Part shown: positions 6,018 to 55,905 of the stretch, in pieces
Numbering within the stretch: position 1 is the first letter of the stretch
How the letters are laid out: each line of letters starts with the position of its first letter
NCBI GenBank assembly: GCA_009599575.1
Contig: VWND01000025.1
Span: 124,001 to 188,000, forward strand
DNA length: 64,000 bases
Direction of reading: 5' to 3'
DNA from: Blumeriella jaapii
Taxonomy: Eukaryota > Ascomycota > Leotiomycetes > Helotiales > Drepanopezizaceae
Notes under the pieces: generated by a model
The model's database searches: none
What the model was told of the DNA's origin: nothing
What the model saw: the letters and a program-made list of their open reading frames with translations, nothing else
Made by a program: the position numbers and the translations under genes

Positions 6018-6018
<1 letters not shown>

Positions 6019-8690: not shown

Positions 8691-8699
8691 TGCGTGCTT

Positions 8700-13782: not shown

Positions 13783-13813
<31 letters not shown>

Positions 13814-26397: not shown

Positions 26398-26430
26398 ATT
26401 GGCGTCGCTATCGAAATTAGCATCGCGAAT
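26398..26430 (+). repeat. 33-bp module in A-I
   Basis: ATTGGCG, core TCGCTATCGAAATTAGCAT, CGCGAAT. It lies between protease and RT of family A, an element unrelated at this position to family B. Confidence 0.65.
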
Positions 26431-26782
26431 GAAATTCGATCTTTTCGCGCTTCGCACAGCGTCGTAGGCCTGTTATAATTAGTTAAGGTTTTTGTTACGT
26501 TTTACAACGTCGTTTTGATAGCGAGATTGAATTTTTCGAAGGTGTAAATAAGAGATTTTAATATAACGAGCGTAAAAAGCTGTGGAAGAATAAAACTTCG
26601 GCTAATAAAACTTGCGTTTATTACAATTTAATAAAACTTAATGTTCGGCCAACCAAGCTTTTTTTAGAATTATATTATGATTTCCGAAGTTGATAATTAA
26701 GAAAAAAGTAAACGATTGTATTCGGTTGTTAATAATAAAATTAAAAAGCGTAAAATATATAATTAAATAGCCATAAGTTTTA

Positions 26783-27010
26783 TTATATTTTTTTATAAAA
26801 AAAAAAGCCGGGAAAAATTAAATCAAAAGTTTTAAAAAAAAAAGAAAAGGATTTAATTAGCGCCGAATCGATTAACGTATAACCGTTCGTTCCAAAGTCG
26901 GCGAGCGCTTTTATTTTGTACGAAAAATTATTTTTAATAAGTATAACGGGAATTATTAATAAATCGCTATTAAAAAGCTTTCGAACGTTAAAATAACGTA
27001 TATCGCGCAA
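26783..27010 (-). pseudogene. A-I aspartic protease region
   Basis: The frame contains IPVILIKNNFSYKIKALADF then GTNGYTLIDSALIKSF, resembling a retropepsin segment with the active-site D[ST]G altered. It lies between the gag-like region and RT, as expected. Confidence 0.65.
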
Positions 27011-27049
27011 TACGTTTAAAAAAAAGGTTTTGCTTAGGCCTGAGCGTTT

Positions 27050-28510
27050 TTCCGATTGGCGGGAAAGCTTTCGATTTTTTCGTATGCGTTTTGAAAGTCG
27101 TTTGGAAAAAGGTTTTCGTTTTTACTATTATTATCGGAAAACGAATTTTCGGCCGGCTCGACTTCGTTTACACTTATTAGTCTGGGAAAGCTTTTAAATA
27201 GAACCGAGGGTCGGCCCGTAGAGGGTCGTGCAAATTGGCCTTTCTGAATTTTCTGGTGTGGAATAAAAAACGAGCGTTGTCGTTGGTCCGATCGAAAAGG
27301 AAAAACGCCAAAGGAAACGTTTTGGCGTAGAGGAGAAGGAAAAACAGAGGGCTAAAAAGAAATCTGTAAAGCATTTGAACGATTTTCGTACGTACGGTTT
27401 AATTCGTAATACGCTTTGGTTAAGAATTTATTATTTTGATAAATAATAAATTTGGTTGAAAAGCGACTCGCGTATAAAGTTCGTTTAGTCAATTAATTTT
27501 GTTTTTTTTATCGAACGGCGGTAAATTAATTTTTAAAAGTCGTTGTACGCGCTTATTTTAAATACAGCTTTTTTTATAAACGCTTTGGTATTTTATTACG
27601 GAAGGCGTTCCGAAGCTGTTTATCGGTCCGTATTTAAGCGTTCGTTGCGAAAGTAGAAAATCGCAGGTAAAATCGCTAAAAATCGTCGTGCGTATTTATT
27701 GTAAGCATTTTAAATTCGTTTTCCGCTTTTTAAATATTTAAAAGGTTAATTAGAAAATCGGCGACTTTTTTTATTAATTTTTCGGAAAATATAAGGTCGG
27801 AACGGTTTAAAATACGCGGGGTCAGAAACTTTTTTGCCACGCTTTCGGTCTGATCGAATATGTAATTTTTGCGAAATCGATCGCTAGCGAAATAATCGTG
27901 GTAAAGTTCGAAGTTGTCGAGAATTTTAATTTTTCAATAGCGTGTTTTATAATTTTTATTATTATTTAATTTAAATTTAAAATTCGAAACGCGTTTTATG
28001 CGAGCTAATCGAAAGTCAGCAAATAAATAGGAATTATAGCGTTTAAAAAGCGCGCTAAAGTTTTGGCCGTCAGAAGGAAATTCAAAAAAAGTTCGCGAAA
28101 GCGTAAAAATTGATTTGCAACGTTTGTTAATTAAAATGAAACGTTGCGAAAAAAAAAAGAAGCAGCAGATTCGCGATTGGCAAAAATATATTCGATAAAT
28201 TTTATCAAACGCTTTAATTAAAAGGTTTGTCGCAATCGTATAATTTCCAGAAGTTGTCGTTCACGCTTTTGCGCTTTTTTCAGTTGATTTTGCAAAAGTC
28301 TTAACTGAGCGCTTTCAGCGCTAGGCTGCGAGGTGGCAAGCGAAATGATTGGCGCTCTGCCTTTTCTTTTGTTTTTTTTTCCTCGGGAGAAAGACTGTTT
28401 TTCAAAAGAAAAAGCTTTTGAAAAAGGCTGCTTTTTTGCTGATTAAAAGAAAGGTTAAGATATAATAACAGGAGCTGAAAAGCTTTGCTAAAAGAAAGAT
28501 CGTTGAACAA
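27050..28510 (-). pseudogene. A-I gag-like region
   Basis: AT-rich decayed coding sequence lies between the 5' LTR and protease. Short open pieces remain (28510-28301 and 27374-27177), with no domain I can name. The gag assignment rests on position. Confidence 0.5.
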
Positions 28511-28640
28511 AAGCCATTTTTCGCGAAATGCGGAAATAAGCCTTTTTACGACCGGTCGATCATTTTGGTATAATCCGTGAGGAATTCGAAGAAAAAGATA
28601 GTTTACGCCGTCGTTAGCGTAGAAAAAAAGTTGTTAATAA

Positions 28641-28907
28641 TATAACGATTTAATTAATCGGAGGGCTGGGAAATCAGTCAGCTGATCGCCGTGTTTATAT
28701 AGTATAAAACGAGCCTTTGGTTTTGTAACAAAGATATTCACTTAAAATCAACAACTGCAGAAGGCAAAGATTGCTAAGGGAAAAGAGTCTTATATATATA
28801 AATAGTTTCCACAGTTGATGGGGAGACCCACCAGAAGACCAGGGAGCTTGCAGCTATACGTAGTTGCTGGGGTGACAAGAGAGGTGGCAACAGAGTGAAT
28901 CGTCACA
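28641..28907 (-). repeat. A-I 5' LTR
   Basis: On plus it reads TATAACGATTTAATT to TCGTCACA. Here the left terminus is mutated (TGTGACGA to TATAACGA) and the right one is intact, the reverse of the other LTR. Confidence 0.9.
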
Positions 28908-28912
28908 AAGCA

Positions 28913-29063
28913 CTCTTTTAGATAGTACCATAGGCACGCAGTTCAATTTATACTTTCATTTATTTTTTTTTTTTTTTTCTTCAGTTTTTTTTAAAGATTT
29001 TCTAGACTATCTTACCCATCGATATATAGCCGTATTAATTTGGTTTTCCTACCTACTTTTATA
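28913..29063 (+). repeat. B-I 5' LTR, second part
   Basis: It resumes with CTCTTTTAGATAGTACC and ends CTACTTTTATA, matching 41786-42052 and 52817-53082 once A-I is removed. Confidence 0.88.
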
Positions 29064-29065
29064 TT

Positions 29066-29091
29066 TGGTAATTTACGCAGGGATTTAAACT
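29066..29091 (+). other. B-I primer-binding site resembling a tRNA 3' half
   Basis: Two bases after the 5' LTR, TGG is followed by seven bases and then GCAGGGATTTAAAC. This matches the complement of a tRNA 3' end with CCA, acceptor stem and T-arm (GGRTTCGAACC pattern, RIP-altered). B-II has the same site, more mutated, at about 42055-42080. Confidence 0.6.
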
Positions 29092-29835
29092 TCGGTGTTT
29101 TCGTTTTTATATATTCGCCGATATATTTTTTAAATTTATAATTAAGATCGATTTCGATATTTCGCCACTACGGCTTGAAAGACTTTTTATATAATATTGT
29201 TCGCAGCTGTATTATATGAAAGATCTTTAATAGCTTTTTTTATTTTGCGCATAATTATTGAATTACAAAAATGCAATATATTTTAGAAACGTTTGAAATT
29301 ACGATTAGGCAATCTTGAACCGTGCGAAATTTAAAGTTCGAAAGTCGCTCTTTTGTTTAAGAATAATAAATCGAATATTGGTTTATACGTTTCGACCGCT
29401 GCGCTCGACCTTTTTAAATTAGATTTCTTTTGGTCAAACGCCTAGCGAAAACTCAACCTTCTGATTTTACGCTTTGTGATTATAGTAATTACAATTTGCG
29501 GCTTTTTATTAAAAATAATAAAAAAATGGCTGTACGTGCATTGGCCTAAGCTACGAAATATCGAAATCGTAAATTATATAATAATATTATATTAATCTAA
29601 TTAACTTATTAAAAAACAAGTTTTTTAATATACTACTCAAATGTCTAAATACAATTTTATTTTATTTAATTTTTTTAGAGAATACAGAAACCTTTTTAAT
29701 AGCTTTTTTATTAAAAACGATTTATTTCATATTAAAAACTTTTAATTTGCAATTCTAGAAAACATTTATTTATTTAATTTAAATTTTACTAACACTTTCG
29801 TTAATATTATAAATAACGACGCTTTTCGTTTTCTT

Positions 29836-31080
29836 ATGCGAGGCCGTATGCTTCTCTTTGAGTCCTCTGGTGCACTTTTATTTAATGGCGCCAATATTAC
29901 CGATTTTATCGAAAAATATAAAAAAACTTATAAGGATTTCGAAGTCTTCGAGACTAAAATGTTCGATAAGCTTCTTCGCTACTGTGATCCGACCACTAAG
30001 GATATTATCAAATCGATGAATAAATAAAAAGCTATTAGGATTCGAAACTGGCGTAAGCTGGTTAAAGCTTTGAAATCGGAATTCCGAAACTACGATCGCT
30101 AGCAAATTCGCGATACTATCGCTTTTCTTAAGCAGTTTATTATGATAATCCGCCAAGCCAAAAAACTCAAAGCTTATTATCGTATTTATACGAAAGTTTT
30201 TGACGTTTTCGTTAATAAAAAGGTTTTAAGCGAAGTTAAATAAAAAAGATTGTTTTTACTTAGCTTTTCAATTAGTATTCGTAACAAAACTATTAAGCAT
30301 TTTAAGATTAATAAACAAGATTTTGAAATCTTCGATTAATATTTCAAATTTGTGAAATTCGTTTTCAAACAAAACCAAAGCGAACGTATTATTAAAGCTA
30401 TAAATTAAAAAAAATCTTTTTCTTTTATTTATAAAAAAGACGTGGAAGCTCTAGTGCAAAAATATGCCTAGCTATTAAAAGTTACCGAAATCGCTAAAAA
30501 ACAATCAGTTATTATATTATTTAATCGTTTTGCAAAACTTATTAGCTTGGAAAAGCTTAATAAGAATATCGAAACTTTCGTGTTAAAATTTACCGATATT
30601 AAAATTTAAAAGTTTTAAAGCAAAGTCGAAAATCTTATACAGCAGCAAAAAAAATTCTTTTACGTTAATTCGGATAATAAAAACGATTAAAATAGCTTTT
30701 ATAATAATTACTTTTTTTAAGATGCGCGAAGCGATTAGCTTCGCCAAGCTATCGTAGAAATAATAGTTGCCTAATAGCAACTTTCTTATGCTAGCGATCA
30801 AAATCAGCGAAATATTAATTATAATAACGATTATTAGAAAAGAAAAGAAAATCAACGCGGAAACCAGAATCGCGGCTATTAAAATAATAAAAGTAATTAT
30901 TAAAACAAATCTTATAGCCCTAAATATGGGTTTTATAATAATAAAAAAATTTATTGCGAAAAACCTTATATTCGCTTAAAATGTAAAGCATTTAATTTTT
31001 GTATAAATAATAAAATTTGTTATATTAATAAATACGAAGCGATTTGCTTCGGACCGACGAAAGCAGAAATAGGCCCTTTT
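29836..31080 (+). pseudogene. B-I gag remnant
   Basis: It begins MRGRMLLFESSGALLFNG then ANITDFIEKYKK and LLRYCDP, which resembles fungal Ty3/gypsy gag N-termini. Decayed coding sequence continues to a Cys-containing stretch near 30960-31075 (CKAFNFCINNKICYIN), possibly a modified zinc knuckle. In-frame stops (TAA, TAG) are frequent. The start at 29836 has a matching Met in B-II at 42822. Confidence 0.75.
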
Positions 31081-32413
31081 AATAAAGCTGAAAATCAAAA
31101 CTGGTTAAATATTATTCGTTTAAAAATAAAAAATACGAAATAGAACGATTGCTTAAAAAACAGAAAGGATGCAAAAACGATTTTTATTAATAAAAGAAAA
31201 AACATTTCCGAAAGCGTATTAATTAAAAAGAAAACTTTTATCCCGAGCGTAAATAAAGTTTAAATATATAAATAAAAAACAAATATATATATTATTAATA
31301 CAATTATCGCATTTGCAAATATTATAGCTGCATAATTAAGCCAGCGAATTATAAGAAAGCAAAATGCTTCTGTTTTATTCGCCAAATTAACTGATGTAAA
31401 AAAAAACGTTAGAATCGAAAAAAAAAAAAAAATTGGAATTCGAAAAAAAACCGATAAAATTATCAGAAAAACGCTTATAATGGAAAAAATTAACGACGAT
31501 ATAAAAGATATCGACACCGACACTTCGGTTTAAATTATTTAGAAAATACCAGCTTCTAAGCGTTTATTATTAATGCGAAGCGAGAAATAAATCGATAAAT
31601 ATATCAGCTCTGAAGCAATCGACGAAGTTATTAAAAAAATTATAAAACAAAAAATTAAATTGAAATTCAGCGATTTATTTAATACAAAAGAAAAATTCGA
31701 TAAAGTTATTAATAAACAAATCTTTATATTAAAAAGAAACGAAAAGATTGAAATTATTCGAAAAAAAAACGATTTTAAATTGGAAAAAGATTAGAAAGAA
31801 ATTTACAACACCGCAGTTAATTTAGCCGATAAAAAAGAATCTTCGGAAGAAATCAGCTTTTTGGTTTTCGTTATAAAAACTTAAAAGTTAAAACGACGAA
31901 ACTGCTTTTATACGGCTATAAAAGCATTAAAAATAAAAATAATACTTAAGAAAAATACGACCGCCCTCGCTTTATTCGATAATAAAACCGAAATTAATTG
32001 CATAAACTAAGAAACAGCCGAAGCTAATAGTATACCGATTATTACCGACAAACGAATAATTTATACGACCGTTAATAAAAATATTATTAAATTTAATAAA
32101 ATTGTACGAAATATAAAAGTCGACGTTAAAAATATTATTATTTATGAAAACTTTTTAATAATAAAAAAATGCTTTTATTTTATTATTTTTGAAATGCTTT
32201 GAATCTTGGAAAGTTTCGTCAGTTTTAAATATATCGAAAACGGCCAAATAAAAGCTTTTTTCTAAAACTAAAACCGATTTTTTTAAGGTTAAATTATCGT
32301 CGCCGGCGACAAAGTTTTTTTAATCGACGTTTTATTAGAAAACGAATAGCCGGCTCTAGTTTTAGAATAAACGCTAGGCTATAATAAAACCTGGAAAATA
32401 CTCGGTTAAAAAT

Positions 32414-32446
32414 ACTTACGTTATTAATCGAAATAGCATCGCGAAT
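32414..32446 (+). repeat. 33-bp module in B-I, upstream of RT
   Basis: Left arm decayed (ACTTACG), core CGAAATAGCAT, right arm CGCGAAT. The equivalent B-II copy is at 45401-45433. Confidence 0.6.
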
Positions 32447-34356
32447 AAAATTGACTAATATTAATATTTTTGGCTATTAATTCGGAAATAAGAGTTTCGA
32501 AGATTTTGTTTTCGTATTAAACAAACCCGACTTATATATTTTATTTTTTTATATTAATATTAGCATTTTTTATAAGCGCAAAGCTGATAAAGTACGATTT
32601 GTGAATTTTAGCGAATCCGGTAAAAATATTTTCGGAAGGATAAACGATTGGTTTGAAAAAGATAAAATAATAAGATTATTTTAATTAGTTATTAACGAGC
32701 TCGAAAGATTTATTACCGGCCGATTTTCTAATTTATTATTTGGCAGCCGATTTACAAAAAAACGATTTGATAATTTAGTAATCGGAATTTAATTTTTGCT
32801 AAAAAAAAAAAAAGTCTTATACGAAGTCCTACGCAACCGAAAAAAGGTTATAGCTTTCGATTTTACCGAAATAAGCTAATTTAGCTTTAACGTTACGTCT
32901 TATATCGATATTAAAACTGTATCGTATAAAGCCTGGCAAGAAAAGACCTTTTTAATTTCTAAAATCCTTTAGGATAAAGTCGTCGAAATGCTAAAAAAAC
33001 GAATTAAGCAAAAGATTTTCGAATTCTGCCACGGCCTATATAAAAACAAATGGTTTATTGTTATTAAAAAAAAGAAAAGCATTTACAGGTTTATTACCGC
33101 AATTGTCGAAATAAACAAAATAACGATACGAAACGTTAACGTGCTATTTAATATCGATTAATTTTCGAACGAATTCGCAGGATTAACGATCGCTTTTTCG
33201 ATTTATTTTCCGGCTACGACCATTTAGTATTTGATTTACGATTTCGAAATATAATAGCAATTTAAATATTAATCGGCCTGCTGCGTATAATTAAAATACT
33301 TATAGGAGCTATTAATTTAATCGCTTAATTCGTAAAAATCGTGTACAAAGTTTTTATAATTTGTATTTTTGATATTGCTTTTTTTTACGTTGACGACGTC
33401 GAAATGAAAAGTTTTAAATTATATTATAATAATAAGGAAATTTTTTTTAAAATTCGACGCTATATAATAGAATATATTTAAAACATCGACAAAATTATAA
33501 TTTGCTTCGAAAAAGCCAAAGCTATTATTGGCTTTCGATCAAAATTTTGTATATCCGAAATAAATATCGTCGGTTATATAATTAATAGCGCTGGCCGCTA
33601 TTTTTAACGAAAAAAAATTAAAAAGATTTACGAATAAAAAAAGTGTAAAAATATTATCGAAGCTAAAGCTTTTATTAGCGTTATGATTTATTATCGCAAT
33701 TAAATTAAAATTTTTTTTTAAAAAGCTATATTTATTTACGCTACGATAAAAAAAAGAATCGATTTCGTTTGGGAAAAAAAACAAAGCAAAGCTATAAAAA
33801 TTTTTAAAAGCGATTTTTTATCGGCCTTATCGCTTATGCGAATCGATTACAGCCCAGACGCAAAAGAAATCATTCTGACTGTCGACGCTAATATTTTCGA
33901 TTAAAAAGCTGTATTATAATAAATCGATAAAAATAAAAAACGGCATTTTTTACGATTCGAAAGCGGCTTATAATTTTTCGCGGAAGCACGCTACGATATT
34001 ATTAAACGAAAATATCGAGGCGTTTTTAAAATAATAAAAAAAATAAAAAGCGAATTATACGGCGTATATTTTATTTTAAAAATAAACGCAAAAGTTTTTG
34101 TCGATTAATTAAATAAAAAAGCTAATAATTTGCTAAAAGCATTCGTTATTAATTAAATAGCTTGGATGCGATTTATAGATTTCGAAGTTAAGTATATTAA
34201 AAAAATAATTAATATAGCGGCAAACGGCTTTTCGAAACGAAAACGCTTTTATCCGTTTGATTTCGCTAAATAAAGCAAACAAAATATTAACGAATAAATT
34301 GCTAACGAAATCGGCTGTTTCGTTATTTGCGCTTTAAGCTTTATAAAGCCAAAACC

Positions 34357-34452
34357 ATTCGCGTTGTTATTTCGGCTGGCACCGCGAGTAAAAAACATTA
34401 ATTTTCGGGCCGAAAAAGCATTCGCGTTATTATTTCGGCTGGCACCGCGAGT
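34357..34452 (+). repeat. 33-bp imperfect palindrome, two copies in B-I
   Basis: Copies lie at 34357-34389 and 34420-34452. Each has arms like ATTCGCG and CGCGAAT around a GGCACC-containing core, exactly 33 bp. The same unit occurs at 26398-26430, 32414-32446, 37485-37517, 45401-45433, 47345-47377, 47408-47440, 50479-50511 and 55873-55905. All ten have the GCAC/GCATCGCG side on the right. Confidence 0.75.
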
Positions 34453-36489
34453 AGATTTGACCGAAAACGATCGGGATAAGCCGATTAGCAACGAAAAAAA
34501 ACTTTTAATCGATAATTACGAAACCGAAGATTTTTATTTAATTGCATATTATTTAATTATTTTAGCTAAATTATTTAACGTGCCAAATTATTAGTTTAAA
34601 TTATTTACCAAGCTTTCGATTATATTTTAGCCGATAGAAAATTATATAAAATAGAAAATAATATATATTAAAAACGATTAGTAATAAATAATAAGGCCGA
34701 TAAGTTTTAAATAATAAAAAAAGCCTACGAAAAAGTGTTTTATAAAAAAGCAAAAGCTATTTATTACCGAATCAAAAACGATTTTTAATAAAAAAAGTAT
34801 TTCGAAAACTGCAAAGCTTTCGTTAAAAGCTGCATTTTTTATTAAAAACGAAAGCCTGGCCGAAAAAAAAACTTATTATATCCGACGTAGTTTTTTAAAA
34901 TCTGAAAAAAGATTAATTTCGATATTATACGCGTATTAATTACCGATCGCGGTTATATATGCTTCGTATTCGCTATTAACGATTTATCCGAATGGCTTGA
35001 AAAACGATTTTTCCGAAACGCTATTTCCGAAATTATAGCGACTTTTTTTTAAAAAAACGTTATATATCGATACGGTTTGTTTAGCAAATTAAACGTCGAT
35101 AATAAATCCGAAAATAAAAGCGTTGTCGAAACTTTTATAAAAAAATACGGTATTTAGCGTATTTAAATTTTAGCTTATAATTCGAAAGGCAACGGATCCG
35201 TTAAACGAAATTATAAAAATATTTTTAACGGCTTTTTAAAAGCTATTCGAAAAAGTTATAAGCGTTGGTCGCGGAAATTTTCGGAAATGCTTTTTGTTAT
35301 GCGTATATATATATACGCTTTTATTAAAGTAATTTTATTTTTTATTTAATACGGCAGAAACGCTCGATTGCTTTTGGAAATAAAATGGCTTGTGTAAAGG
35401 TTTTATAACGTAGTTAAAATAAAAATAAAAGCAGATTTATTAATAATAAAATTTAAGCAGTTCGATTACCGCGATATAAATATAAAAAAAATGATTTTAA
35501 AAAAAAAAAGATATAAGAAGGCAGCTAAAAAAGTTTAAAATAAAATTAAGGTTTTAAAAAAAACGTTAATTAAAAAAGAAGATTTGGTTTTAGTTTACGA
35601 CGTTTAGCGCGCTATTAACAAATCGGCCGATATTAAATTTAATTATAAATAGCTCGGATTTTACGAAGTATGCGAAGCCGAGTTAAATAAAAGCTATTAT
35701 AAGCTTACGGAATTCGATAAAACAAAACTGAAGGAAACGTTCGCCGCTAACCGGTTAAAACGATTTTACAAAAAAAATTAGCAAATATATCTTTTGGATT
35801 TTGATTTAGACAACGATTCCGATTTCAGCGAATCCGACGACGATCGACCAAAGCGATTATATTTCTGAAAAAAAAAAAGCCTAATCCTCTGGAAAGGTCT
35901 GGAAACAACCGGACGATATCCCCGCTACTGAAAGCATAGTTTAAGTCGTGATTCCATTTATAACCGAAAAAAAAAAAGTATTTATAAAATTGTTTATTAA
36001 TTGTTTTATTATTTTTGCTATTTATTGTTTTTTTTTTATTATACACTATTTTACTATTTTCGTTTTGCTTTGCTTGTATATAATTTAATTATTTTGTTTT
36101 ATATATATTATTTATTTTTAAGATTTTTTTTTATATTATTTGGGATATTTATTGTATTTTTTTTTGTTTGATTGTATTTTTGTTTATTAAAACAAAAGCT
36201 TTGTATATGTTTAAGCCGTATATTTGATATATTTATACCGTTCGCATATTTTACGAAAACTATTTTTTATACATTTTATTATTTACTACTTTTTGTATTA
36301 TTTATTTTTTTCGTTATTTTAAACGAATGCCTATTTGAACAATTATAATTTATTAGAAAAACAGCATACGGATTTCCGTAACTTTTGAATACAAATATTT
36401 TATAATTTTTGTATTTTTTTTTATTTATTTTTTAATAAATATAATATACTTTTTTAATTAATAAACCTATCGATATTATATCGTTTCCT

Positions 36490-39400: not shown

Positions 39401-39700
39401 CAACACAAAACTTTTTAGCGCTTTTTGTAAAGCGTAGGACCACGTTTAGAAGCTGAAATTTATTATCTACGGAAAAAAATCGTAGAAAATATCCGTTGCG
39501 GCGGCATTTAATAATATTATCGACGAAAAAGCTATTAAAATATTCGTAAATTTAAACGATATTTCGATTAACATTTTATCGAGCCATTTTTTAAAAAAGC
39601 AGAATGAATAAAATAATTTAAACGATAAGCGAAACGCTATCCTTTTATAGAAGCCAATAGCAAAAAGGCCAAGAACGGATTAGAAAATTAAAATAATATA
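36490..39700 (+). pseudogene. B-family extra coding-like segment downstream of pol
   Basis: About 3.2 kb between the post-pol AT spacer and the 3' LTR keeps codon-like structure on plus, with RIP stops. Examples are FKLINRKRDDFTELNLKNAG, LAAFKNVVPL, FNFVFTNNVNAKKNGKFCYF, HMRYYAAYCDLIIKEI and FADRFVAIKNSDYDVFEI. I recognise no family. The same segment at the same place in B-II (about 49500-52690) shows it is a stable part of the element. It could encode a very large accessory protein (about 1000 residues if uninterrupted), an env-like product or a captured host gene. Confidence 0.6.
37485..37517 (+). repeat. 33-bp module in the extra segment of B-I
   Basis: Both arms are intact (ATTCGCG and CGCGAAT), with core TCGTTAGCAGAAAAAGCAT. 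The equivalent B-II copy is at 50479-50511. Confidence 0.7.
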
Positions 39701-39829
39701 AGATTAAAAAGTTCGGTTTTTAATTAATTGATTTTTAAATTATATAAGATAAACTAGATTATATTTATTAAAATTATATTTTTTTTTGATTGTAATCAAA
39801 AACGATTACGTATATTGTTTGGGACAGAA

Positions 39830-40096
39830 TATAAAACGGTAATATTTTGTATTAATAGAAGTTAATAGTTTTAATTATGATCGAAGCATGGATTTTTCCG
39901 AGACCTTTTGCTATTGATTATTTTTAACAGATATAAAAGCAAAGCATCCTTTTAAATAATATTATAAGCACGCAGTTTAATTTATACTTTTATTTATTTT
40001 TCTTTTTTTTTTTTCAGTTTTTTCTAGGGATTTCCTAAACTATTTTACCCACCGACATATGGCCGTATCAGTCTGGTTTTCCTACCTACTTTTACA
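39830..40096 (+). repeat. B-I 3' LTR
   Basis: The 267-bp LTR runs TATAAAACGG to CTACTTTTACA and retains the unmutated TTTTACA end. A short purine-rich GGGACAGAA precedes it and may be the polypurine tract. Confidence 0.88.
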
Positions 40097-42821: not shown

Positions 42822-43970
42822 ATGCGAGGCCGCATGCCCCTCTCTGGCTCTTTTAATACACTTTTATTCAGTGGCGCCAACGTTACCGATTTTATTAAAA
42901 AATATAAAAAAACCTGCGAAAATTTCGAAATTTTTAAAACTAAAATATTCGACAAACTCCCTCGCTATTATAATTTAATTACTAAAAATATTATTAAATC
43001 GATAAATAAATAAAAAGCTATTAAAGCTCGAAACTGGCGCAAATTAATTAAAGTTTTAAAATCGGAATTTCGAAATTACGATCGCTAGCAAATTCGCGAT
43101 ACTATCGCTTTTTTTAAACAATTTATTATAACAATCCGCCAAGCCAAAAAACTTAAAGCCTATTATCGTATTTATACGAAAGTTTTTAACGTTTTCGTTA
43201 ACAAAAAAGTTTTAAGCGAGGTTAAGCAAAAAAAATTGTTTTTATTTGGCTTTTCAACCAGCATTCGCAATAAAACCATTAAACATTTTAAAATCGATAA
43301 ACAAAACTCTAAAACCTTCGATTAATATTTCAAATTTGTAAAATTCGTTTTTAAACAAAACTAAAGCGAACGTACTATTAAAGCTATAAACCAAAAGAAA
43401 TCTTTTTTTTTTATTTATAAAAAAAACGTAAAAGCTTTAATATAAAAATATGCCCAGCTATTAAAAGTTACCGAAATCGCTAAAAAACAATCAATTATTA
43501 TATTATTCAATCGTTTTGCAAAGTTTACAAATTTAAAAAAGCTTAACAAAAATATCGAAACTTTCGTATTAAAATTTACCGATATTAAAATTTAAAAATT
43601 TTAAAGCAAAATCGAAAGTTTTATATAATAGTAAAAAAAACTTTTTTACGTTAACTCGGATAATAAAAACGATTAAAATAATTTTTACAATAATTACTTT
43701 TTTTAAAATGCGCGAAGCGATCAGCTTCGCCAAGCCACCGTAAAAGTAATAACTGCCTAATAGCAACTTTTTTTTATGCTAGCGATTAAAATCAGCGAAA
43801 TACTAATTATAATAATAATTATTAAAAAAAAAGAAAAAACCAACGCGGAAATTAAAATCGCGGCTATTGAAATAATAAAAGTAATTATTAAAACAAATCT
43901 CGTAGCCTTAAATGTGAATTTTGTAATAACAAAGAAATTTACTGCGAAAAATCCTATATTCGCTTAAAAT
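42822..43970 (+). pseudogene. B-II gag remnant
   Basis: It starts MRGRMPLSGSFNTLLFSG then ANVTDFIKKYKK, parallel to B-I. This N-terminus appears closer to the unmutated family consensus in places. Stops follow from about 43010. Confidence 0.75.
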
Positions 43971-46900
43971 GGAAAGCATTCAATTTTTGTATAAATAATA
44001 ATATTTGCTATATTAACAAATATAAAACGATTTGCTTCGGACCAACGGAAACAGGAATAAACCCTTTTAATAAAGCTAAAAATCAAAATTAATTAAATAT
44101 TATTCGCTTGAAAATAAAAAATACGAAATGGAACGATTGCTTGAAAAACAGAAAAAATATAAAAACGATTTTTATTAATAAAAAAAAAACATTCTAAAAA
44201 GCGTATTAATTAAAAAAAAAACTTTTATCCTAAGCGTAAATAAAATTTAAATATATAAATAAAAAACAAATATATATATTGCTAATGCAAATATCGCATT
44301 TGCAAATATTATAACTGCATAATTAAGCCAGCGAATCACAAAAAAGCAAAATGCTTTTATTTTATTCGCCAAATTAATTAATATAAAAAAAAACGTTAGA
44401 ATCGAAAAAAAAAAATTTTGAAATTCGAAAAAAAACCGATAAAACTATTAAAAAAACTTTTATAATAAAACAAATTAACGATAATATAAAAAATATCGAT
44501 ACCGATATTCCGATTTAAATTATTTAAAAAATACCAGCTTTTAAACGCTTATTATTAATGCGAAGCGAAAAATAAATCGACAAATATATCAGCTCCGAAG
44601 CAATCGACGAAACTATTAAAAAAATCATAAAACAAAAAATTAAATTGAAATTTAGCGACCTATTTAGCATAAAAAGAAAATTCGATAAAATTATTAATAA
44701 ACAAATTTTTATATTAAAAAAAAAACGAAAAAATTAAAATCACCCGAAAAAAAAACGATTTTAAAATAAAAAAAAATTAAAAAAAAATTTATAATATCGC
44801 AGTTAATTTAGCCGATAAAAAAAAATCCTCGGAAAAAATCAGCCTTTTAATTTTTATTATAAAAACCTAAAAATCAAAACGACGAAACTGCTTTTACATA
44901 GCTATAAAAGCGCTAAAAATAAAAACAATATTTAAAAAAAATACGACCGTTTTCGTTTTACTCGATAATAAAGCCGAAGTCAATTATATAAACCAAAAAA
45001 CAGCCGAAGCCAATAATATTCCGATTATTATCGATAAACGAATAATTTACACGACCGTTAATAGAAATATTATTAAATTTAATAAAATTATACGAAATAT
45101 AAAAATCGACGTTAAAAGTATTATTATTTATAAAAACTTTTTAATAATAAAAAAATGCTTCCATCTTATTATTTTTAAAATGCCTTAAATTCTAAAAAGT
45201 TTCGTCAGTTTTAAATACACCGAAAACGGCCAAATAAAAGCTTTTTTTTTAAAACTGAAACCGATCTTTTTAAAGCCAAATCACCGTCGCCGACGATAAA
45301 ATCTTTTTAATCGACGTTTTATCGGAAAACGAATAGCCGGCTTTGGTTTTAAAACAAACGCTAAGCTATAACAAAACCTGGAAAATATTCGGCTAAAAAC
45401 ATTTACGTCGCTAATCGAAATAGCACCGCGAATAAAATTGGCTAATATTAATATTTTTAGCTATTAATTCGGAAATAAAAATTCCGAAGATTTCGTTTTC
45501 GTATTAAATAAACCCGATTTATATATTTTACTTTTTTGTATTAATATCAGCACTTTTTACAAGCGTAAAGCTAATAAAATACGATTCGTGAATTTTAGCG
45601 AATTCGATAGAAATATTTCCGAAAAAATAAACGATTAATTTAAAAAAAATAAAATAATAAAATCATCCTAACTAATTATTGGCGAATTCGAAAGATTTAT
45701 CACCGGCCGATTTTTCAGCTTATTATTTAGCAGCCGATTTATAAAAAAACGATTTAATAATTTAGCAATCGAAATTTAATTTTTGCCAAAAAAAAAAAAG
45801 GTTTTGTACGAAATCTTACGCAACCGAAAAAAAATTATAGCTTTCGATTTTACCGAAATGGGCCAATTCAGTTTTAACGTTACGCTTTATATCGATATTA
45901 AAACCGTGTTTTACGAAGTTTGGCAAAAAAAACCTTTTTAATTTCTAAAGCTTTTTAAAATAAAATAATCGAAATGCTAAAAAAACGAATTAAATAAAAA
46001 ATTTTCGAATTTTATTACGGCTTATACAAAAACAAATAGTTTATCGTTGCGAAAAAAAAGAAAAGCATTTATAAACTTATTATCGCAATCGTCGAAATAA
46101 ACAAAATAACGATACGAAACGCTAACGTGCCACTCAACGTCGATTAATTTTCGAACGAATTCGCAAAACTAACGATCGCTTTTTTTTTCGATCTGTTTTT
46201 CGGCTACGATTATTTAATACTTAATTTACGATTTCGAAATATAACAGCAATTTAAATTTTAATCGGTTTGCTACGTATAATTAAAGTATTTATAAAAGTT
46301 ATTAATTCGGTCGTTTAATTCGTAAAAATCGTATATAAAATCTTTATAATTTGCATTTCTGATATTATTTTTTTTTATATTAACGACGTCGAAATAAAAA
46401 GCTTTAAATCATATTATAATAATAAATTTTTTTTTCCGAAAGTTCGACGCTATATAATAAAACATATTTAAAACATCGATAAAATTATAGTTTGCTTCGA
46501 AAAAGCCAAAGCTATTATTAGCTTTCGATTAAAATTTTGCATGCCCGAAATAAATATCGTTAGCTATATAATTAATAGCGCCGGCCGCCACTTTTAATAA
46601 AAAAAAATTAAAAAAATCTGCGAATAAAAAAAATGTAAATATTACCGAAACCAAAGCCTTTATTAGCGTTATGATTTATTACCGCAATTAAATTAAAAAC
46701 TTTTTTTAAAAAGCTGCATTTATTTACGCTACGATAAAAAAAGAAATCGATTTCGTTTGGAAAAAAAAATAAAGCAAAGTTATAAAAGTTTTTAAAAACA
46801 ATTTTTTATCGGCCTTATCGCTTATGCGAATCGATTATAACCCAAACGCAAAAAAAATCATTTTAACTATCGACGCTAGTATTTTCGATTAAAAAGCTGT

Positions 46901-47344
46901 ATTGTAATAAATCGATAAAAACAAAAAACGGCATTTTTTACGATTCGAAAGCGGCTTATAATTTCTCGCGAAAATACGCTACGATGCTATCAAACGAAAA
47001 TATCGAAGCGTTTTTAAAATAATAAAAAAAATAAAAAGCGAATTATACGGCGTATATTTCATTTTGAAAATAAACGCAAAAGTTTTTATCGATTAATTAA
47101 ATAAAAAAGCTAATAACCTGCCAAAAGCATTCGTTATTAATTAAATAGCTTGGATGCGATTTATAAACTTCGAAATTAAATATATTAAAAAAACAATTAA
47201 TACAGCGGCAAACGGCTTTTTTAAACAAAAACGTTTTTATCCGTTTGATTTCGCTAAACAAAACGAATAAAATATTAACGAATAAATTACTAACGAAATC
47301 GGTTGCTTCGCTATTTGCGCTTTGGATTTTACAGAGCCAAAATC

Positions 47345-47440
47345 ATTCGCGTTGCTATTTCGGCTGGCACCGCGAATAAAAAACATTAATTTTCGGACCG
47401 AAAAAGCATTCGCGTTATTATTTCGGCTAGCACCGCAAAT
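47345..47440 (+). repeat. 33-bp module, two copies in B-II
   Basis: Copies at 47345-47377 (both arms perfect) and 47408-47440 (right arm RIP-changed to CGCAAAT), same sites as in B-I. Confidence 0.7.
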
Positions 47441-49499
47441 GAATTTGACCGAAAACAATCGGGATAAGCCGATTAATAACGACGAAAATAAACTTTTAAT
47501 CGATAACTACGAAATAAAAGATTTTTATTTAATCGCATATTATTTACCATTTTATTTAAATCATTTAGCGTATCAAATTATCAGTTTAAATTATTTAAAA
47601 ACCAGGCTTTCGATTATATTTTAGCCGATAAAAAACTGTATAAAATAAAAAATAATATATATTAAAAACGCTTAATAATAAATAACAAAGCTGATAAATT
47701 TCAAATTATAAAAAAAACCTACGAAAAAATATTTTATAAAAAAGCTGAAATTATTTATTACCGAATCAAAAACGACTTCTAATGGAAAAAATGCTTCGAA
47801 AACTGTAAAGTTTTCGTTAAAAGCTGCATCTTTTATTAAAAACGAAAACCTGGCCGAAAAAAAAACTTATTATATCCGATATAATTTTTTAGAATTTAAA
47901 AAAAAATCAATTTCGACGTTATACGCGTACCGATTATCGACCGCGGATATACGTGTTTCGTACTCGCTATTAACGATTTATTTAAATAATCTGAAAAAAA
48001 ACCTTTTCGAAACGCTATTTTCGAAGCTATAACAACCTTTTTTTAAAAAAACGTTATATATCGATACGGTTTGTTTAGCAAATTAAACGTCGATAATAAA
48101 TCCGAAAACAAAAGCGTTGTTAAAACTTTTACAAAAAAATACGATATTCAGCGCATTTAAATTTCAATTTACAATTCGAAAAGCAACGGATCCGTGGAAC
48201 GAAACCATAAAAATATTTTTAACGGCCTTTTAAAAACTATTCGAAAAAGCTATAAGCGTTAATTACGGAAATTCTCGGAAATGCTTTTTATTATGCGCAT
48301 ATGCATACACGCTTTTATTAAAATAATTTTATTTTTTATTTAATACGGCAAAAACGCCCGATTATTTTTAAAAACAAAATGGCTTATATAAAAGTTTTAT
48401 AACGTAGTTAAAATAAAAACGAAAGCTGACTTATTAGCAATAAAATTTAAACAGCTAAATTACCGCGATATAGATATAAAAAAAATAATTTAAAAAAAAA
48501 AAAATATAAAAAAATAGCTAAAAAAGTCTAAAATAAAACCAAGATTTTAAAAAAAACGCTAATTAAAAAAAAAGATTTAATTTTAATTTACGACGTTCAG
48601 CGCGCTATCGACAAATCGGCCGATACTAAATTTAATTATAAATAGCTCGAATCTTACGAAATATACGAAGCCGAATTAAATAAAAGCTATTATAAACTTA
48701 CGAAACTCGATAAAACAAAACTAAAAAAAACGTTCGCCGCCAACCGGTTAAAGCGATTTTATAAAAAAAATTAGCAAATTTACCTTTTAAACTTTAATTT
48801 AAACAGCGACTTCGATTTCAGCGATTCCGACGACGATTCCGACCAAAGCGATTATATTTCTAAAAAAAAAAAAACTTTTGAAAAAATTTAAAAACGACCG
48901 GACGATAACTTCGCTGTTAAAAACACAATTTAAGTCGTGATTCCACTTATAACCGAAGAAAAAAAATGCTTACAAAATTGTTTATTAATTATTTTATTAT
49001 TTTTTATTATTTATTATTTTCTTTTTTTATTATATATTGTTTTATTATTTTTGTTTTGCTTACTTATATATAATCTAATCATTTTATTTTATATATATTA
49101 TTTATTCTTAAGACTTTTTTTTATATTATTTAAAATATTTATTATACTTTTTTTTATTTAACTGTACTTTTGTTTATTAGAACAAAGGTTTTGTATATAT
49201 TTAAGCCGCATATTTGATATATTTATAATGCTCGGATATTTTACGAAAACTATTTTTTATACATTTTATTATTTGCTATTTTCTGCACTGTTTACTTTTT
49301 TCGCTGTTTTGAACGGATGCTTGCCTAAATAGTTATAATTTATTAAAAAAATAATATACGGATTTCCGTAATTTTTAAATACAAATATTTTATAATTCCC
49401 GTACTTTTTTCCAATTACTTTTTAATAAATATAATACATTTTTTTAATTAACAAATTTATCGATACTATATCGTTTTTTAATTAAAGCGTTGCTAAACT

Positions 49500-52400
49500 T
49501 AGCAAACTTATTTTTAATTTATTTTAAAACGGAATTATTATACGCAATTTTTTCGAATTTAAGCAAATATACAATGCCGCCATTTTAAATTAACAAGCAG
49601 CTTTCGTAAAAATATTTATAAAACAATTCGATATAATAATTAAAAACGTTAATAAATTTTTATTCGATTACGAAAGTTTTATTAAAACTAAATTTATTCG
49701 CAAAAGTTTTAATTACGATAAGTTTTTGCTAAATTACAATAACGTTTTAAAAATCTTCGCCGAAGCAAAAAAAACTCGAAATAACAAAAAAAAAATAACA
49801 AACCGAATATTACGCTTTTTGCCAAATCAACGAAAAAAAAATATTTAAAAATACGTTTTTAACAAAATCACCGGTGTTATTTTATTTCGGCACTTCGCTC
49901 GCTTTTTCGAAATTATTACCTTTATTAAAAAAAAAGTCTGGATATTAAACGCTTATATTTTTAAAACGCAAATTTTAAAAGCTAATAATCCAAAGGTCCG
50001 CAAATTCACAGGCTTTTTTACAATTGTCTGCAAACTGGTCGACGACGTTATACAATCGCCAAAAAAAGTTTTAATCGGCTGCGAAATTTTAAATTTGATT
50101 TTTTTTTTAAAACAAAAAATTAAGCGTCGCTAAATACGGCATTTTTATATTAAAAAAAAAAAACGACGTTATTTCGATATTTCAAATTTACGACGACGAA
50201 AAAAACGAAAAAGCCAATATTATTTTCGTTTAATTCGAAAAAATATACGCGATAGCAATTAATACTTTTAAAGCAATTAAAACAATTCGGCGATTTTTAC
50301 TTTTAATTATCGAAAACGAATCCGAAAACGAAACCAAAAGTATAACAGTAAATAACCGCTTATTCGAATACAAAAAACCTATTATACTTATAAAAATAAT
50401 TCCGAAAAAAATAAAAATAAAAAACGTAAAAAAACGCGCCGACATTTTCGAAACTTTTTTTATTCGAAAAAAAAAATCATTCGCGTCGTTAGCAAAAAAA
50501 ACACCGCGAATAAAAACAGCCGGAAATCGACGCCGAGTTATAAGCTTTAAGCTAATTAACAAAAAACGCGACGATTTTACGAAATCAAATTTAAAAAACG
50601 CCGGCATTTCGAAAAAAAAAACCCAAACGATTTTAAATTTGATTTTTCGAAATTAAATACGCAAATATTAAAAACGCTTGCTGCGTTTAAAAACGTCGTA
50701 CCGCCGATACTTCAAATTTTAATAAAAGTATTTAAAATCTCGATTATTATACGGCTCGACCGAAAAGATTTGAAAAAAAATATCGAAATTATCGCGAAAA
50801 AAATTATATAAAAAACACAAAATTAAATTATTTTATTTAAAAATCTCGCTTTCGACGACGAAACGATCTAAAAGTTTTATTTCGATACGTTTATACAAAA
50901 ATCAAATAAATTCGTCAGCTTTTTTCTTTTTGCTTCGAACGAAAATTAAACCAAGCTTTTTTCGAAAAATTACAAATATAATACGTTAAAGCAAATAAAA
51001 AAAACTTTTGAAAACGGTAATTTATTTTTATTCGAGCTTTTTTTCGCTAAGAAACTCCGATTTTTTAATTTCGTTTTTACAAATAACGTTAACGCTAAAA
51101 AAAACGGCAAATTTTGTTATTTTTACGTACGCTATTACGCGGCGTATTACGATTTAATTATAAAAAAAATTAATATTATCGGCTTCGCTAATCGATTCGC
51201 TGTTATTAAAAATTCGGATTACGACGTATTCGAAATTGATTTTAATAATTAATTTATATTCCGACGAAAAACTGCGAAAATTATTTAAGCGCGTGCTAAA
51301 ATTTACCTGGGCTACGCAAACTTTAAAATAAACCTTAAGGTTTTTAGCGCGATTATAAAGCTCGATTAAAACGTAAAAAAATAAAAACAACAAATATTTT
51401 TAAAAGCCGACTTTTTTAGCTTTTCGACCGAAAATATATTTTAAAGTTTATTTAAATTAAATTGCGAATTCGTTAATTACGTAAAATCTTACAACGAAGA
51501 AAACAAATTATTATTATATTTTATAAAAAAAAAAGTAGCTATATACAAGTATTATTTTCGACTGGTTAAAACCCAAAAAACGCTTACAGCTTTTTTACTA
51601 ATATATTTTATAATTTTATTTAATAAGCTTTCAAAATACACCCCGGCTTTTACTTCGCTGTTTTAATTATTCGAAACCTCGGAAACTGCCGTTTCGTAGC
51701 TTACTTTAACGTTCCGATCGCTTTAAGTTTCGCTGATCCCGACCGTATTATAATTATAAAATTCGATATCGCCGATTTTCAAAAAAAGAAAAAAATCGAA
51801 AACTTTATTAACGCCATTTTCGATTACTACGTTTTGCTTGCATTCGCATATAATTCGGAAATAATCGAAGCTTATTTGCAATTATACTACGACGCCAAGC
51901 TGACTAAAATCACTCAGAAAAGCTCAGCTTTCTCGTATTTTAGCGCGTTTAAAACAATGGCTTTAATTATTTCATCGAATTACAAAACCGAAAGCTACGG
52001 AATAAAAAATAAAATAACTTTTATTAGCTTTTCGATTAAGCAAAAAGTTTTCGTTAAATTCAGAATTTAAAAAACCGACGGCGCGATACTAATTTATTCG
52101 AATAATTATACGGCGCAAAAATACAAAAACCATTTCGAAAACGACGTTTCGATAAGCTATCTAATATTATTTATACTGCGGCGAAAGCAATTACAACATT
52201 TTCGGTAATTTCGATTGCAAACGATTATTTCCGAATTATTTCGTAAAATAGTTTTTTTTACAAACTTCGAAGCTTTTTCAAAAGCACTCGTCGGCAAACA
52301 ATCGTAATTCGACCTATTAATTTTACGCGAAGCAAAAGCGTTAATCGGTTTTAATTACGACGAATTAATCGATTATTTTTACAATTTCAATATAAGACTT

Positions 52401-52690
52401 TTTAACGCTTTTTGCAAAGCGTAAAACTACGTTCAAAAGCTAAAATTTATTATTTACGCAAAAAAGTCGTAGAAAACATCCGTCGCGGCGACGCTTAATA
52501 ATATTATCGACGAAAAAGCTATCAAAACGTTCGTAAATTTAAACGATATTTCGATTAATATTTTATCGAATTATTTTTTAAAAAAGCAGAATAAGCAAAA
52601 TGATTTAAACGACAAGCGAAACGCTATTTTTCCGCAAAAGCCAATAGCAAAAAGGCCAAAAACGGGTTAGGAAACCGAAAGAATATAAAG
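49500..52690 (+). pseudogene. B-II extra coding-like segment
   Basis: It is collinear with 36490-39700. The longest surviving piece (51834-52070) reads MLAFAYNSEIIEAYLQLYYD and so on. RIP stops break the rest. Confidence 0.55.
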
Positions 52691-52816
52691 CTAAGAAATT
52701 CGGTTTTTAATTAATTGGTTTTTAAATTATATAAAATAAATTAAATTACATTTATTAGAATTATGTTTTTTTTTAATCGTAATCAAAAACGATTACGTAT
52801 ATTATTTGAAACAGAA

Positions 52817-53082
52817 TATAAAACGGTAATACTTTGTATTAATAAAAATTAATAGTTTTAGTTATAATCGAGGCATAAACCCTTTCGAGACCCTTTGCCA
52901 CTGATTACTTTCAACAGGTATAAAACAAAGCACCCTTTTAAATAGTATTATAAGCATACAATTCAATTTATACTTTTATTCATTTTTCTTTTCTTTTTTT
53001 CAGTCTTTTCTGGGGATTCCCTAAACTATCTTACCCACCGATATGTGGCCGTATCAGTCTGGTTTTCCTACCTACTTTTATA
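52817..53082 (+). repeat. B-II 3' LTR
   Basis: 266 bp, TATAAAACGGTAATAC to CTACTTTTATA, preceded by a purine-rich GAAACAGAA. Confidence 0.9.
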
Positions 53083-54599
53083 TTATTTTAGTAGAAATTT
53101 ACGAAAGGTCGAAAGCGTTTTTGCAGATATTGGTTGTAAATTTCGGTTTGACCGTCGGTTTTAAAATGAGCGGCTGTTGAAAGTTTTAATTGCGTATCGA
53201 ATATTTTGTTTAATTCAGATTAAAAAATAAATTAATATTAAAGGTTACGATCGCTAATAATACTTTTTAAAAAGTTAAAATATTTGTATACGTGAAATAT
53301 ATATAATTTGGCGAAGTTTCGAGCGTCGATATTTTTATAACAGAAAATCGAAATAATTTGCTTGGAAAAGCGATTTATTATTACGAATACGTTATTATAA
53401 TCGTATTTGTTTTGTTAAAATTGCAAAAGTTTATTATAACGTGCTTTTAAAAATAATCAAAAATAAAAAAAAACTGAAAAAAGCCGGAGCGTTTATTTTT
53501 TAAAATAAAACTTTTTCGATAAGCGTAGCAATTGCGATAATATTATTTTACGAAAGCTGTTATATTTCGCTAATAATATTAGTTCGAAAGCAATTGCGTA
53601 GTTTTGCGAGCGTTGGGATAAGCGGTAAAGATTTGGTCGTGCACTTTTCGTATAAGGGCCAAACGAAAGTAATCGACGTTTAATATTATTAAGCGATCGT
53701 GATATAACAGCAGATCGCGTTTAAATATATACGAAATGTTGTTATTGTTTTTTTTCGCAGCGTTTCGTACAGCTTTTTTTCGGAGGGCTATCAGGCTGCT
53801 AGCTGTGCGATTAGCGTGAAAAAGCTGGTTAACGATACGAAATGCGAAAAAAAAATTAGCTATTTTAACGATAAAAACAGCTGTTTCGGAGGCCGTGAAA
53901 AGTCGAAGTTTTTTAATTAAAAGGCGGTGATTAATTTAATCGGTTCGAAAAAAGGTTTGCAGACGCTAAATGCGTTTAAAAAAGTTTTAGCGGTCGAATT
54001 CGGTCGTACGACGTATTAATACGTTAGTCAAAAGATTGTATTTATTTGGTTTGTACGTAATAAGAAAATTGTAGTCGGCGAAAAGCTCGGCTTAGCGTGC
54101 TTATCGAGCGTTTAAAGATTTGAAAATTATAAAATATTTTAAAGCTTTGTGATTAATAATAATTTTGATTTAATAAATTGAATTAAGTAATTTAATACGA
54201 AAATTGCTTAGAAATTTTATAATTGCGAGCATTTTTTTGTCGTATACAACGTAGTTTAGTTTTGCGAAAACTATGGTTTTGCTAAAATAAACGATTAAGA
54301 ATTAATCGTCGTTATAGAATTGCGAAAGCATAAAAGCTATTACGCCGTCGGAAGCGTTAGTTTTTAATATGCAAGGAAGGTTTTGCTTATAATATTATAG
54401 AATTGATGCAATAATAAAGGCTAGTATAAAAAGGTCGAAACTTTTTTAATATTTAAAAATGAAATTATAAAAAACGTTAGCTTTGGTTAAATAAACTAGA
54501 AATTTTGCAATTATATCGTAGTTTCGAATAAAACGTCGGTAAAAGTTATAAAAACCAAAAAAGCTTTATATATTTTTTATAATAATAGAAAGCTTTTAA

Positions 54600-55200
54600 T
54601 AAGCGATTACGAAAAAATTTTTTGGGTTTATTTTTAGGCTTTTAATAGAAATAATAAAACTTAGGTAACGGGTTCGAATAACGTTGAATTTAGACTTTCG
54701 AATATCGGCTTATAATTTAGCGTTAACGAGCTTTTAAAGCATTTTGCGAACGTATATAGCGTGTTTTAAAAAATCGAACGAATAAATAAAAATATTATTT
54801 AAATTTATAATATAAAAATCGTTTAAATAATCGAAAAAAACGTCGTTTATATAATATTAATAAATTGCGGGTTTATTAATAAAGCTAAAAAATAGTATTT
54901 TGCATTTATAAGCGTCGTAACGCGTACGAAACGTCGTTAATTTTTTATTAGCAAAATTCATTCGAATTTTATAAAAAATTTAACGAATATCGAGCTTTAT
55001 AAAAATTCGCGCTTTCGAAAAACGAGCAAAAGTTTTATCGATAAAAAAAAAAAGGTAGCGATTTTTACGAGTAATATTATTAAAAATTCGATAATCGATA
55101 TAAAAACGCAATAAACCGTCGGGTTTTTTGGCGAAAAGCATTAAAACAGCGAAAAAAGCGATAAAAGGTTCGATAAAGCTTTTGTTAAAGTTATTTTACA
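54600..55200 (-). pseudogene. A-II reverse transcriptase remnant
   Basis: It aligns with 25129-25734 of A-I on minus, with the AKKPDG-type segment at about 55115-55140, but carries more stops. No long frame remains. Confidence 0.75.
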
Positions 55201-55785
55201 AATAAGTTTTAATAATTTCGAGCTTTAGAATCGATATTTTGTATAAAAAAATGTATTTTAGTTTTTTTTTATTTATAATAAGTTCGATTTTATGGTCGTA
55301 AAGCCGGTAAAAGGCTAGCTTATTATTGGCGGCTTTAAAAAACACGTATTCGAGGTTTTTGTATTTCGGAAAAAAAGATTCGAGGAAAGGTTTATTCGAA
55401 GTTAGTTTTATTAAGCTGGTTAAAAGGGTCGAAATCGATATTTCGTTCGTTTTAAAGCGTTCGAAAAAACTGTGAAATTAAGTTTTAAGAAAAGTGTTAT
55501 ACGTAAAATTGTTTAGTATTTTGTCGATTTTATATAAAAAAATTAAAAATATTTTAATTGCTTTTTTTTTGAAAATTAGCTTGAAAATATAAATAGTGAT
55601 TTGGCAGATGAAAATTGGATAAGCAGTAAGTTAAGAGACTCGTTTTCGAACTGGTCGTTTGGAAGGTTCAGAAAATGGCTTATTTAAATTATCGATTATA
55701 TTAAATTAAAAGGTTATCGCGGCGAAGGTTTTTTTTCGGTTTTTGATATAATTGTTTTTCGTAGAACGAAAAAGCTGTTTTGACG

Positions 55786-55816
<31 letters not shown>

Positions 55817-55872
55817 ATAAAAAAAGGATCGGCAGCTTAAAAAAGTGGTGGTATGATTTTTTGTATTATTTT

Positions 55873-55905
55873 ATTAGCGTCGCTATCGAAATTGGCACCG
55901 CGAAT
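55873..55905 (+). repeat. 33-bp module in A-II
   Basis: ATTAGCG, core TCGCTATCGAAATTGGCAC, CGCGAAT. Same site as in A-I. Confidence 0.65.

What the first reader, a model, noticed from the sequence alone, without database searches (positions are those of the whole stretch)
26398..55905. A 33-bp imperfect palindrome at ten sites inside two different retrotransposon families
Exactly 33 bp each time, with 7-bp arms close to ATTCGCG and CGCGAAT and a core near GAAAT..GGCAC. It sits once in family A (26398, 55873) and at four places per copy in family B (32414, 34357, 34420, 37485; B-II equivalents 45401, 47345, 47408, 50479). The length is 11 codons, so it adds residues without shifting frame. All copies face the same way in the window although A and B run in opposite directions. 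Family kinship cannot explain several positions within one element. A mini mobile unit, an introner-like insertion or a recombination signal are possible.
Basis: partly seen in the sequence, partly recalled or inferred. Interest (0 to 1): 0.75.

Follow-up and report, generated by a model that had tools for sequence, protein, structure and literature searches.

The report
Hairpin repeat inside two fungal retrotransposons
A 33-letter near-palindrome really does recur at five positions inside two different, heavily mutated jumping-gene families of a fungus-like genome; it looks like an old in-frame insert that was copied along with them, and nothing seen here shows that it still moves by itself.

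Summary
The ten units exist at the stated coordinates, 33 bp each. They are five positions: one in family A, four in family B, each seen in two element copies. With each position left out in turn, 9 of 10 sites rank first in the window for a profile of the others; 32414 ranks 15th. The arms alone do not beat chance. Genome-wide there are 2,268 B-type and 610 A-type strand matches. Five restricted searches gave no convincing unit outside A and B. The unit is fixed: no empty site among 40 scored copies for A and 40 for B1. At B2/B3, 39 of 40 copies carry two units and one carries one. In 11 of 13 further B copies the frame runs unbroken from RT through the units into integrase. Six distant B relatives lack it, with a 53-64 residue linker against 99. 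Best reading: an RPE-like palindromic in-frame insert, placed in polyprotein linkers before the families amplified, perhaps by template switching. Its outer arms hold C only in CpG, which this genome's RIP-type decay spares. Autonomous mobility, target duplication and recombination were not shown. 'All face the same way' holds for A, B1 and B4 only.

The parts
26398..26430 (+). unit A1 in element A-I (antisense to A's coding strand), upstream of RT
55873..55905 (+). unit A1 in element A-II
32414..32446 (+). unit B1 in B-I, upstream of the RT region (weakest of the ten)
45401..45433 (+). unit B1 in B-II, between a weak protease match and the RT region, same frame as both
34357..34389 (.). unit B2 in B-I, RNase H-integrase linker, orientation undetermined
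34420..34452 (.). unit B3 in B-I, 63 bp after B2
47345..47377 (.). unit B2 in B-II
47408..47440 (.). unit B3 in B-II
37485..37517 (+). unit B4 in B-I, in an unassigned 3' open frame
50479..50511 (+). unit B4 in B-II
22500..28903 (-). element A-I (LTRs about 260 bp), RT piece on the minus strand at 25132-25512; inserted in the left LTR of B-I
28906..40094 (+). element B-I, main part (its LTR start lies at 22385-22500)
41786..53084 (+). element B-II (LTRs about 269 bp), nested in A-II
40673..61382 (-). element A-II, interrupted by B-II (41786-53084) and by an insert at 56113-57981; right end not settled

Best explanation
The unit is an old palindromic insert of 33 bp (11 codons; 4-5 of 6 frames open in 5 of the 6 copies looked at). 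It was placed at about four spots, in insertion-tolerant linkers of two different LTR retrotransposons, before each family amplified, and has since been carried passively by their copies. The copying probably took place between or within element RNAs and cDNAs during reverse transcription, by hairpin-assisted template switching (inferred), followed at B2/B3 by a local 63-bp duplication or contraction. The outer arms stay alike because, in their commonest form, their C and G lie in CpG, the context spared by this genome's RIP-type decay. Shown: recurrence, fixation at A1 and B1, confinement to A and B within the patterns searched, in-frame reading at B2/B3 and at B1-II, absence of unit-like peptides from the distant relatives examined. 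Inferred: insertion at A1, B1 and B4, template switching, absence of a present function.
For: Leave-one-out ranks; A-II/B1-II match over 39 columns although A and B are coded on opposite strands; RNase H-integrase linker of 99 residues in B-I against 53-64 in 6 of 6 relatives, with none of three unit-like peptide patterns; unit frame unbroken from RT or RNase H into integrase in 11 of 13 further B copies; none of five unit-like peptide patterns in the 120 listed of 665 A relatives; no empty site in 40 of 40 scored copies at A and at B1, exactly +33 bp in the 12 further A copies where both flanks aligned; one copy with a single unit and 63 bp less; CpG observed/expected 2.5-3.5 in the elements against 1.05 in 1-16000.
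Against: No empty site in this genome, so insertion at A1, B1 and B4 is not shown; B4 was not tested. Linkers of A relatives vary too much to see an insert. No target duplication recognised. Four of eight folded units give no better hairpin than shuffles. The four B units read in one frame with similar peptides (FA.L...APR) after lysine-rich residues, as a peptide repeat would. In both window copies of B the integrase region continues in another frame after B3, as it does in 1 of 13 further copies. Template switching was not tested.
Confidence: 0.45

Rival explanations
1. A peptide repeat of the B polyprotein: a linker segment reading K-x-F-A-x-L-x-x-x-A-P-R was duplicated inside B, for instance as protease sites or spacers, and the palindrome is incidental; A later captured one copy in antisense.
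For: B1-B4 read in one frame and B1-B3 lie between enzyme regions; similar A-rich letters just before all four B units (by eye); B2/B3 differ from a single-unit copy by one 63-bp step.
Against: The A unit is antisense to A's coding strand yet matches B1 best. Codon third positions of the arms do not vary more than the others (by eye). None of three peptide patterns in 6 of 6 relatives.
Confidence: 0.25
2. A functional dyad or RNA hairpin kept in several copies: packaging signal, or a binding site for a dimeric DNA-binding protein, shared by A and B.
For: Alike arms around a variable centre; stable fold for B2-II (-14.6 kcal/mol, z -3.8) and B4-I and B4-II (z -2.6, -2.7); no empty site among scored copies at A and B1.
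Against: CpG sparing can explain arm conservation without selection (inference); four of eight folds are unremarkable; number and place differ between the families; distant relatives examined lack it.
Confidence: 0.15
3. A self-mobile mini-element like Rickettsia palindromic elements, moved through the host genome by its own or a borrowed enzyme.
For: 33-bp palindrome with open frames in both orientations, read in frame.
Against: Restricted pattern searches of the genome gave only A/B-like copies or unrelated letters; no empty sites at A or B1. These searches required near-exact arms and certain flanks or centres, so diverged host copies could be missed.
Confidence: 0.08
4. A loxP/FRT-like tyrosine recombinase site (13+8+12 layout with variable 8-bp core).
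For: Layout only (loxP and FRT layout recalled).
Against: The one rearrangement seen, a 63-bp difference, is explained by repeat contraction or a pre-duplication state. No recombinase was sought.
Confidence: 0.03
5. Chance likeness of CpG-rich words in RIP-decayed DNA.
For: Arms alone are within chance; CpG is over-represented about threefold; 32414 ranks only 15th; two of nine alignments are reached by shuffles.
Against: Leave-one-out ranks and most alignments against dinucleotide shuffles.
Confidence: 0.04

Closest known systems
Rickettsia palindromic elements (RPE)
   Same: Palindromes with stem-loops found fused in frame in protein genes, at least one product active (passages of PMC2229807).
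   Different: RPEs are 105-146 bp, in Rickettsia, also intergenic and in RNA genes; this unit is 33 bp and was found only in two LTR retrotransposon families.
[quoted passage not shown]
   Same: Dyad-symmetric DNA that encodes a repeated peptide, in some taxa tied to mobile elements (abstract and outline of PMC2996958).
   Different: PARCELs encode a 25-residue motif in tandem arrays; here 11 residues, dispersed, one tandem pair.
Mitochondrial double-hairpin elements and GC clusters of fungi (recalled, no call)
   Same: Short hairpins that enter genes (recalled).
   Different: Mitochondrial; no link tested.
Ty3-type LTR retrotransposons of fungi
   Same: A has a Pfam RT piece (PF00078) and both have RT-RNase H-integrase relatives.
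   Different: The relatives examined show none of the unit-like peptide patterns.

Membership tests
Rickettsia palindromic element | palindromic stem-loop | tested here: inconclusive
   6-10 of 12 arm positions pair; 4 of 8 folded units better than most shuffles
Rickettsia palindromic element | in-frame insertion in coding sequence, relatives without it | tested here: inconclusive
   supported at B2/B3: frame unbroken in 11 of 13 copies, linker shorter in 6 of 6 relatives; not resolvable at A1; B1, B4 not compared for insertion
Rickettsia palindromic element | dispersal over many host genes and intergenic sites | tested here: not met
   within the restricted patterns used
Rickettsia palindromic element | length 105-146 bp, in Rickettsia | tested here: not met
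   33 bp; a pattern with 25 specified letters has 0 exact matches in the GTDB contig collection
PARCEL | 25-residue tandem amphipathic repeat | tested here: not met
   11 codons, at most a pair in the copies seen
MITE / DNA transposon derivative | terminal inverted repeats with target-site duplication | tested here: inconclusive
   inverted arms present; A-rich flanks make a short duplication unreadable by eye
Tyrosine-recombinase site | strand exchange at the core by a recombinase | not testable with these tools
   no recombinase sought
Introner | spliced intron with splice sites | not tested
   33 bp; no transcript data

The most novel reading that the evidence does not exclude
A eukaryotic counterpart of RPEs that lives only inside retrotransposons: a 33-bp hairpin that spread in frame from element to element, in at least one case across families and coding strands, by template switching in shared particles, so that retroelement genomes host their own parasite.
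Probability: 0.2. Interest if true: 0.72.

Novelty: new variant of a known kind. Interest (0 to 1): 0.4.

Why it matters
In-frame palindromic inserts are described from Rickettsia. A case confined to two LTR retrotransposon families of one eukaryote, with opposite coding strands, would point to exchange of very short hairpins between retroelement genomes, which comparing sister species could date. It is also a warning: in RIP-decayed DNA, words whose C and G lie in CpG survive and look specially conserved.

Tried and rejected
Chance likeness: rejected for full units, accepted for arms alone. Copies outside A/B: pyrimidines at centre positions 18-19 gave 14 hits, all aligned to site B4; G/C at -4 gave 4, two aligned to B4 and two unrelated by eye, one of which (L053) scores 22.5 bits on a profile whose best chance places in the window reach 22-25; two G/C with one mismatch gave 1, the same place as a B4 copy; G/C at -3 gave 4 and T-A at -4/-3 gave 1, judged B-like from their centres only, apart from that same B4 copy. 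One search was uninformative because one mismatch let B copies in. Other families in fetched DNA: a profile scan of the 58 records held (57 loci and the window) gave 88 places above 24 bits, 87 of them aligned to known A/B sites and one in a G+C-rich stretch of L053, a composition effect of an AT-rich background. Elsewhere: 0 exact matches in GTDB contigs and IMG/VR, collections of prokaryotes and viruses. One B protein search found nothing, the next found 11. Literature: six searches whose listings, capped at 12-15 rows in three of them, named no paper on such a unit in fungal retrotransposons; beyond listings I saw only the outline and abstract of PMC2996958 and passages of PMC2229807. Species: not identified; named A relatives include Sclerotinia, Monilinia, Clarireedia and Podosphaera, so a leotiomycete-like ascomycete is a guess.
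Full report
What was checked. Self-comparison shows a nest of LTR elements: A-I (22500-28903) inserted in the left LTR of B-I (28906-40094), and B-II (41786-53084) inside A-II. So the ten sites are five positions (A1, B1, B2, B3, B4), each seen in two copies, with B2/B3 63 bp apart.

Is it more than chance. The elements look RIP-decayed: GC 0.26-0.33, (CpA+TpG)/(ApC+GpT) 0.61-0.68 against 0.94 in 1-16000, CpG at 2.5-3.5 times expectation against 1.05. CpG-bearing words are therefore common. The largest shuffle values are 22-25 of 33, whereas A-I/B4-I share 26 direct and B4-I/B2-II 26 inverted. With each position left out in turn, a profile of the others puts 9 of 10 sites first; 32414 ranks 15th, or 3rd if B2/B3 are inverted. 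That profile used the copies aligned without gaps: B1 13, B2 15, B4 19, A 2, B3 only 1, because my filter dropped gapped rows. A-II and B1-II align over 39 columns including the AAAATT after the unit (52 against a shuffle maximum of 37). Six further pairs exceed all 300 shuffles, mostly narrowly; A-I/B4-I is reached by 2 and A-II/B4-I by 14 of 300.

Anatomy. Seven-bp outer arms, then a few more pairs around a centre of about nine bases; of 12 arm positions 10 pair at the two best sites, 6 at the worst. Of eight units folded as RNA, the B2-I, B2-II, B4-I and B4-II units beat most shuffles (z -2.5 to -3.8), while B1-II, B3-I and both A units do not; B1-I and B3-II were not folded. In six copies translated, two frames per orientation are open, with one frame more in B2-II and one fewer in B1-II. 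The outer arms in their commonest form contain C only in CpG, so the decay that blurs centre and flanks leaves them alone; this may suffice to explain why they look so alike. A, B1 and B4 point the same way. B2 scores as well or better inverted against B1 and B4, but direct against A.

Where it sits. A is coded on the minus strand (RT piece 25132-25512, PF00078, E 9.5e-12). Its unit lies upstream of RT in a stretch that corresponds, by alignment to relatives read by eye, to a variable protease-RT linker. B is coded on the plus strand. A weak protease match stands at 44871-45185 (E 2.4e-4, below Pfam's cut-off), then B1 in the same frame, then the RT start, about 100 bp after the unit. RT and RNase H match six relatives at 37-41% identity up to just before B2, and integrase-region matches begin after B3, although a Pfam scan of 47712-48029 found none. 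In 11 of 13 further B copies one alignment to relative P0125 runs across B2/B3 in a single frame, the frame FALLFRLAPR; in 1 of 13 the frame changes after B3, in 1 the alignment does not span the units, and in both window copies the frame changes after B3. B4 lies in an unassigned 3' frame. The coding strands of A and B oppose each other while the A and B1 units agree, which a shared peptide cannot explain.

Distribution. The genome (47.4 Mb) has 2,268 strand matches of a B-type pattern with up to two mismatches and 610 of an A-type pattern. Palindromes can match on both strands and the sets may overlap, so these are not element counts; the pattern read backwards gave none. Five restricted searches for units with other centres or flanks returned 14, 4, 1, 4 and 1 places: two unrelated by eye, the rest B-like, 17 of them placed by alignment to B4 (the B4 place recurs) and the others by their letters only. 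These searches demand near-exact arms, so diverged copies could be missed.

Empty sites. A joined-flank query should rank an empty site first. For B1, all 40 scored places (of 483 candidates) span the unit: 39 are 253 bp and one 252 bp for a 220-bp query. For A, none of 40 scored (of 622 candidates) aligns across the junction as an empty site would. The window's copy and the 12 others with both flanks aligned carry exactly 33 extra bases, and in the other 27 only one flank aligned. At B2/B3, 39 of 40 scored places (of 474 candidates) carry 95-106 extra bases, 35 of them exactly 96, and one carries 30. That copy (L057) has one unit and lacks the 63 bp between: a contraction or a pre-duplication state. 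B4 was not tested for empty sites.

Relatives. Of 665 proteins related to A's pol, the 120 listed hold none of five unit-like peptide patterns. For B, 11 proteins passed. The six close ones hold none of three such patterns, and from the RNase H end to a landmark matched by eye their linkers are 53, 58, 61, 63, 63 and 64 residues against 99 in B-I. Two units and their spacer make 32 of the 35-46 extra residues. At this distance that supports an insertion at B2/B3 but cannot date it.

Interpretation. I take it as an old palindromic insert, tolerated because it is in frame in flexible linkers, placed about four times before amplification and now passive. Confinement to retroelements and the A-B1 likeness across coding strands suggest exchange between element genomes; template switching is my inference and no call tests it. 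A B-internal peptide repeat with one antisense capture by A is the strongest rival.

Novelty. RPEs are the nearest known kind in working (PMC2229807, passages), but length, host and dispersal differ, so it is not filed as one. Six paper searches listed nothing on such a unit (capped listings).

Noticed in passing
56113-57981: A 1.87-kb insert in A-II with 229-bp terminal direct repeats 99.6% identical, GC 0.47, (CpA+TpG)/(ApC+GpT) 1.03, flanked by AAAAC on both sides (56108-56112 and 57982-57986): apparently a young LTR-type element little touched by RIP.
   Followed up: partly
6824-8514: C-rich imperfect tandem arrays (GC skew -0.75 in 7001-8000; units such as TTTCAACTC) beside the gene-rich part.
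   Followed up: partly
48900-52800: Family B carries nearly 4 kb after the integrase region (matches to relatives end near 48852); three pieces tested (49849-50130, 50234-50653, 51627-52067) match no Pfam family at E 0.05.
   Followed up: partly
27278-27310 and 58625-58657: In the AT-rich part, the only other places with at least 9 of 12 arm pairs, five of them G-C, in the 12-9-12 layout; roughly equivalent positions of A-I and A-II.
   Followed up: no
L057 (G000:C5:754700-755000): A B copy with a single unit at B2/B3.
   Followed up: partly
34453-34609 and 47441-47546: In both window copies of B the integrase region is in another frame than the linker with B2/B3, whereas 11 of 13 other copies keep one frame.
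   Followed up: partly
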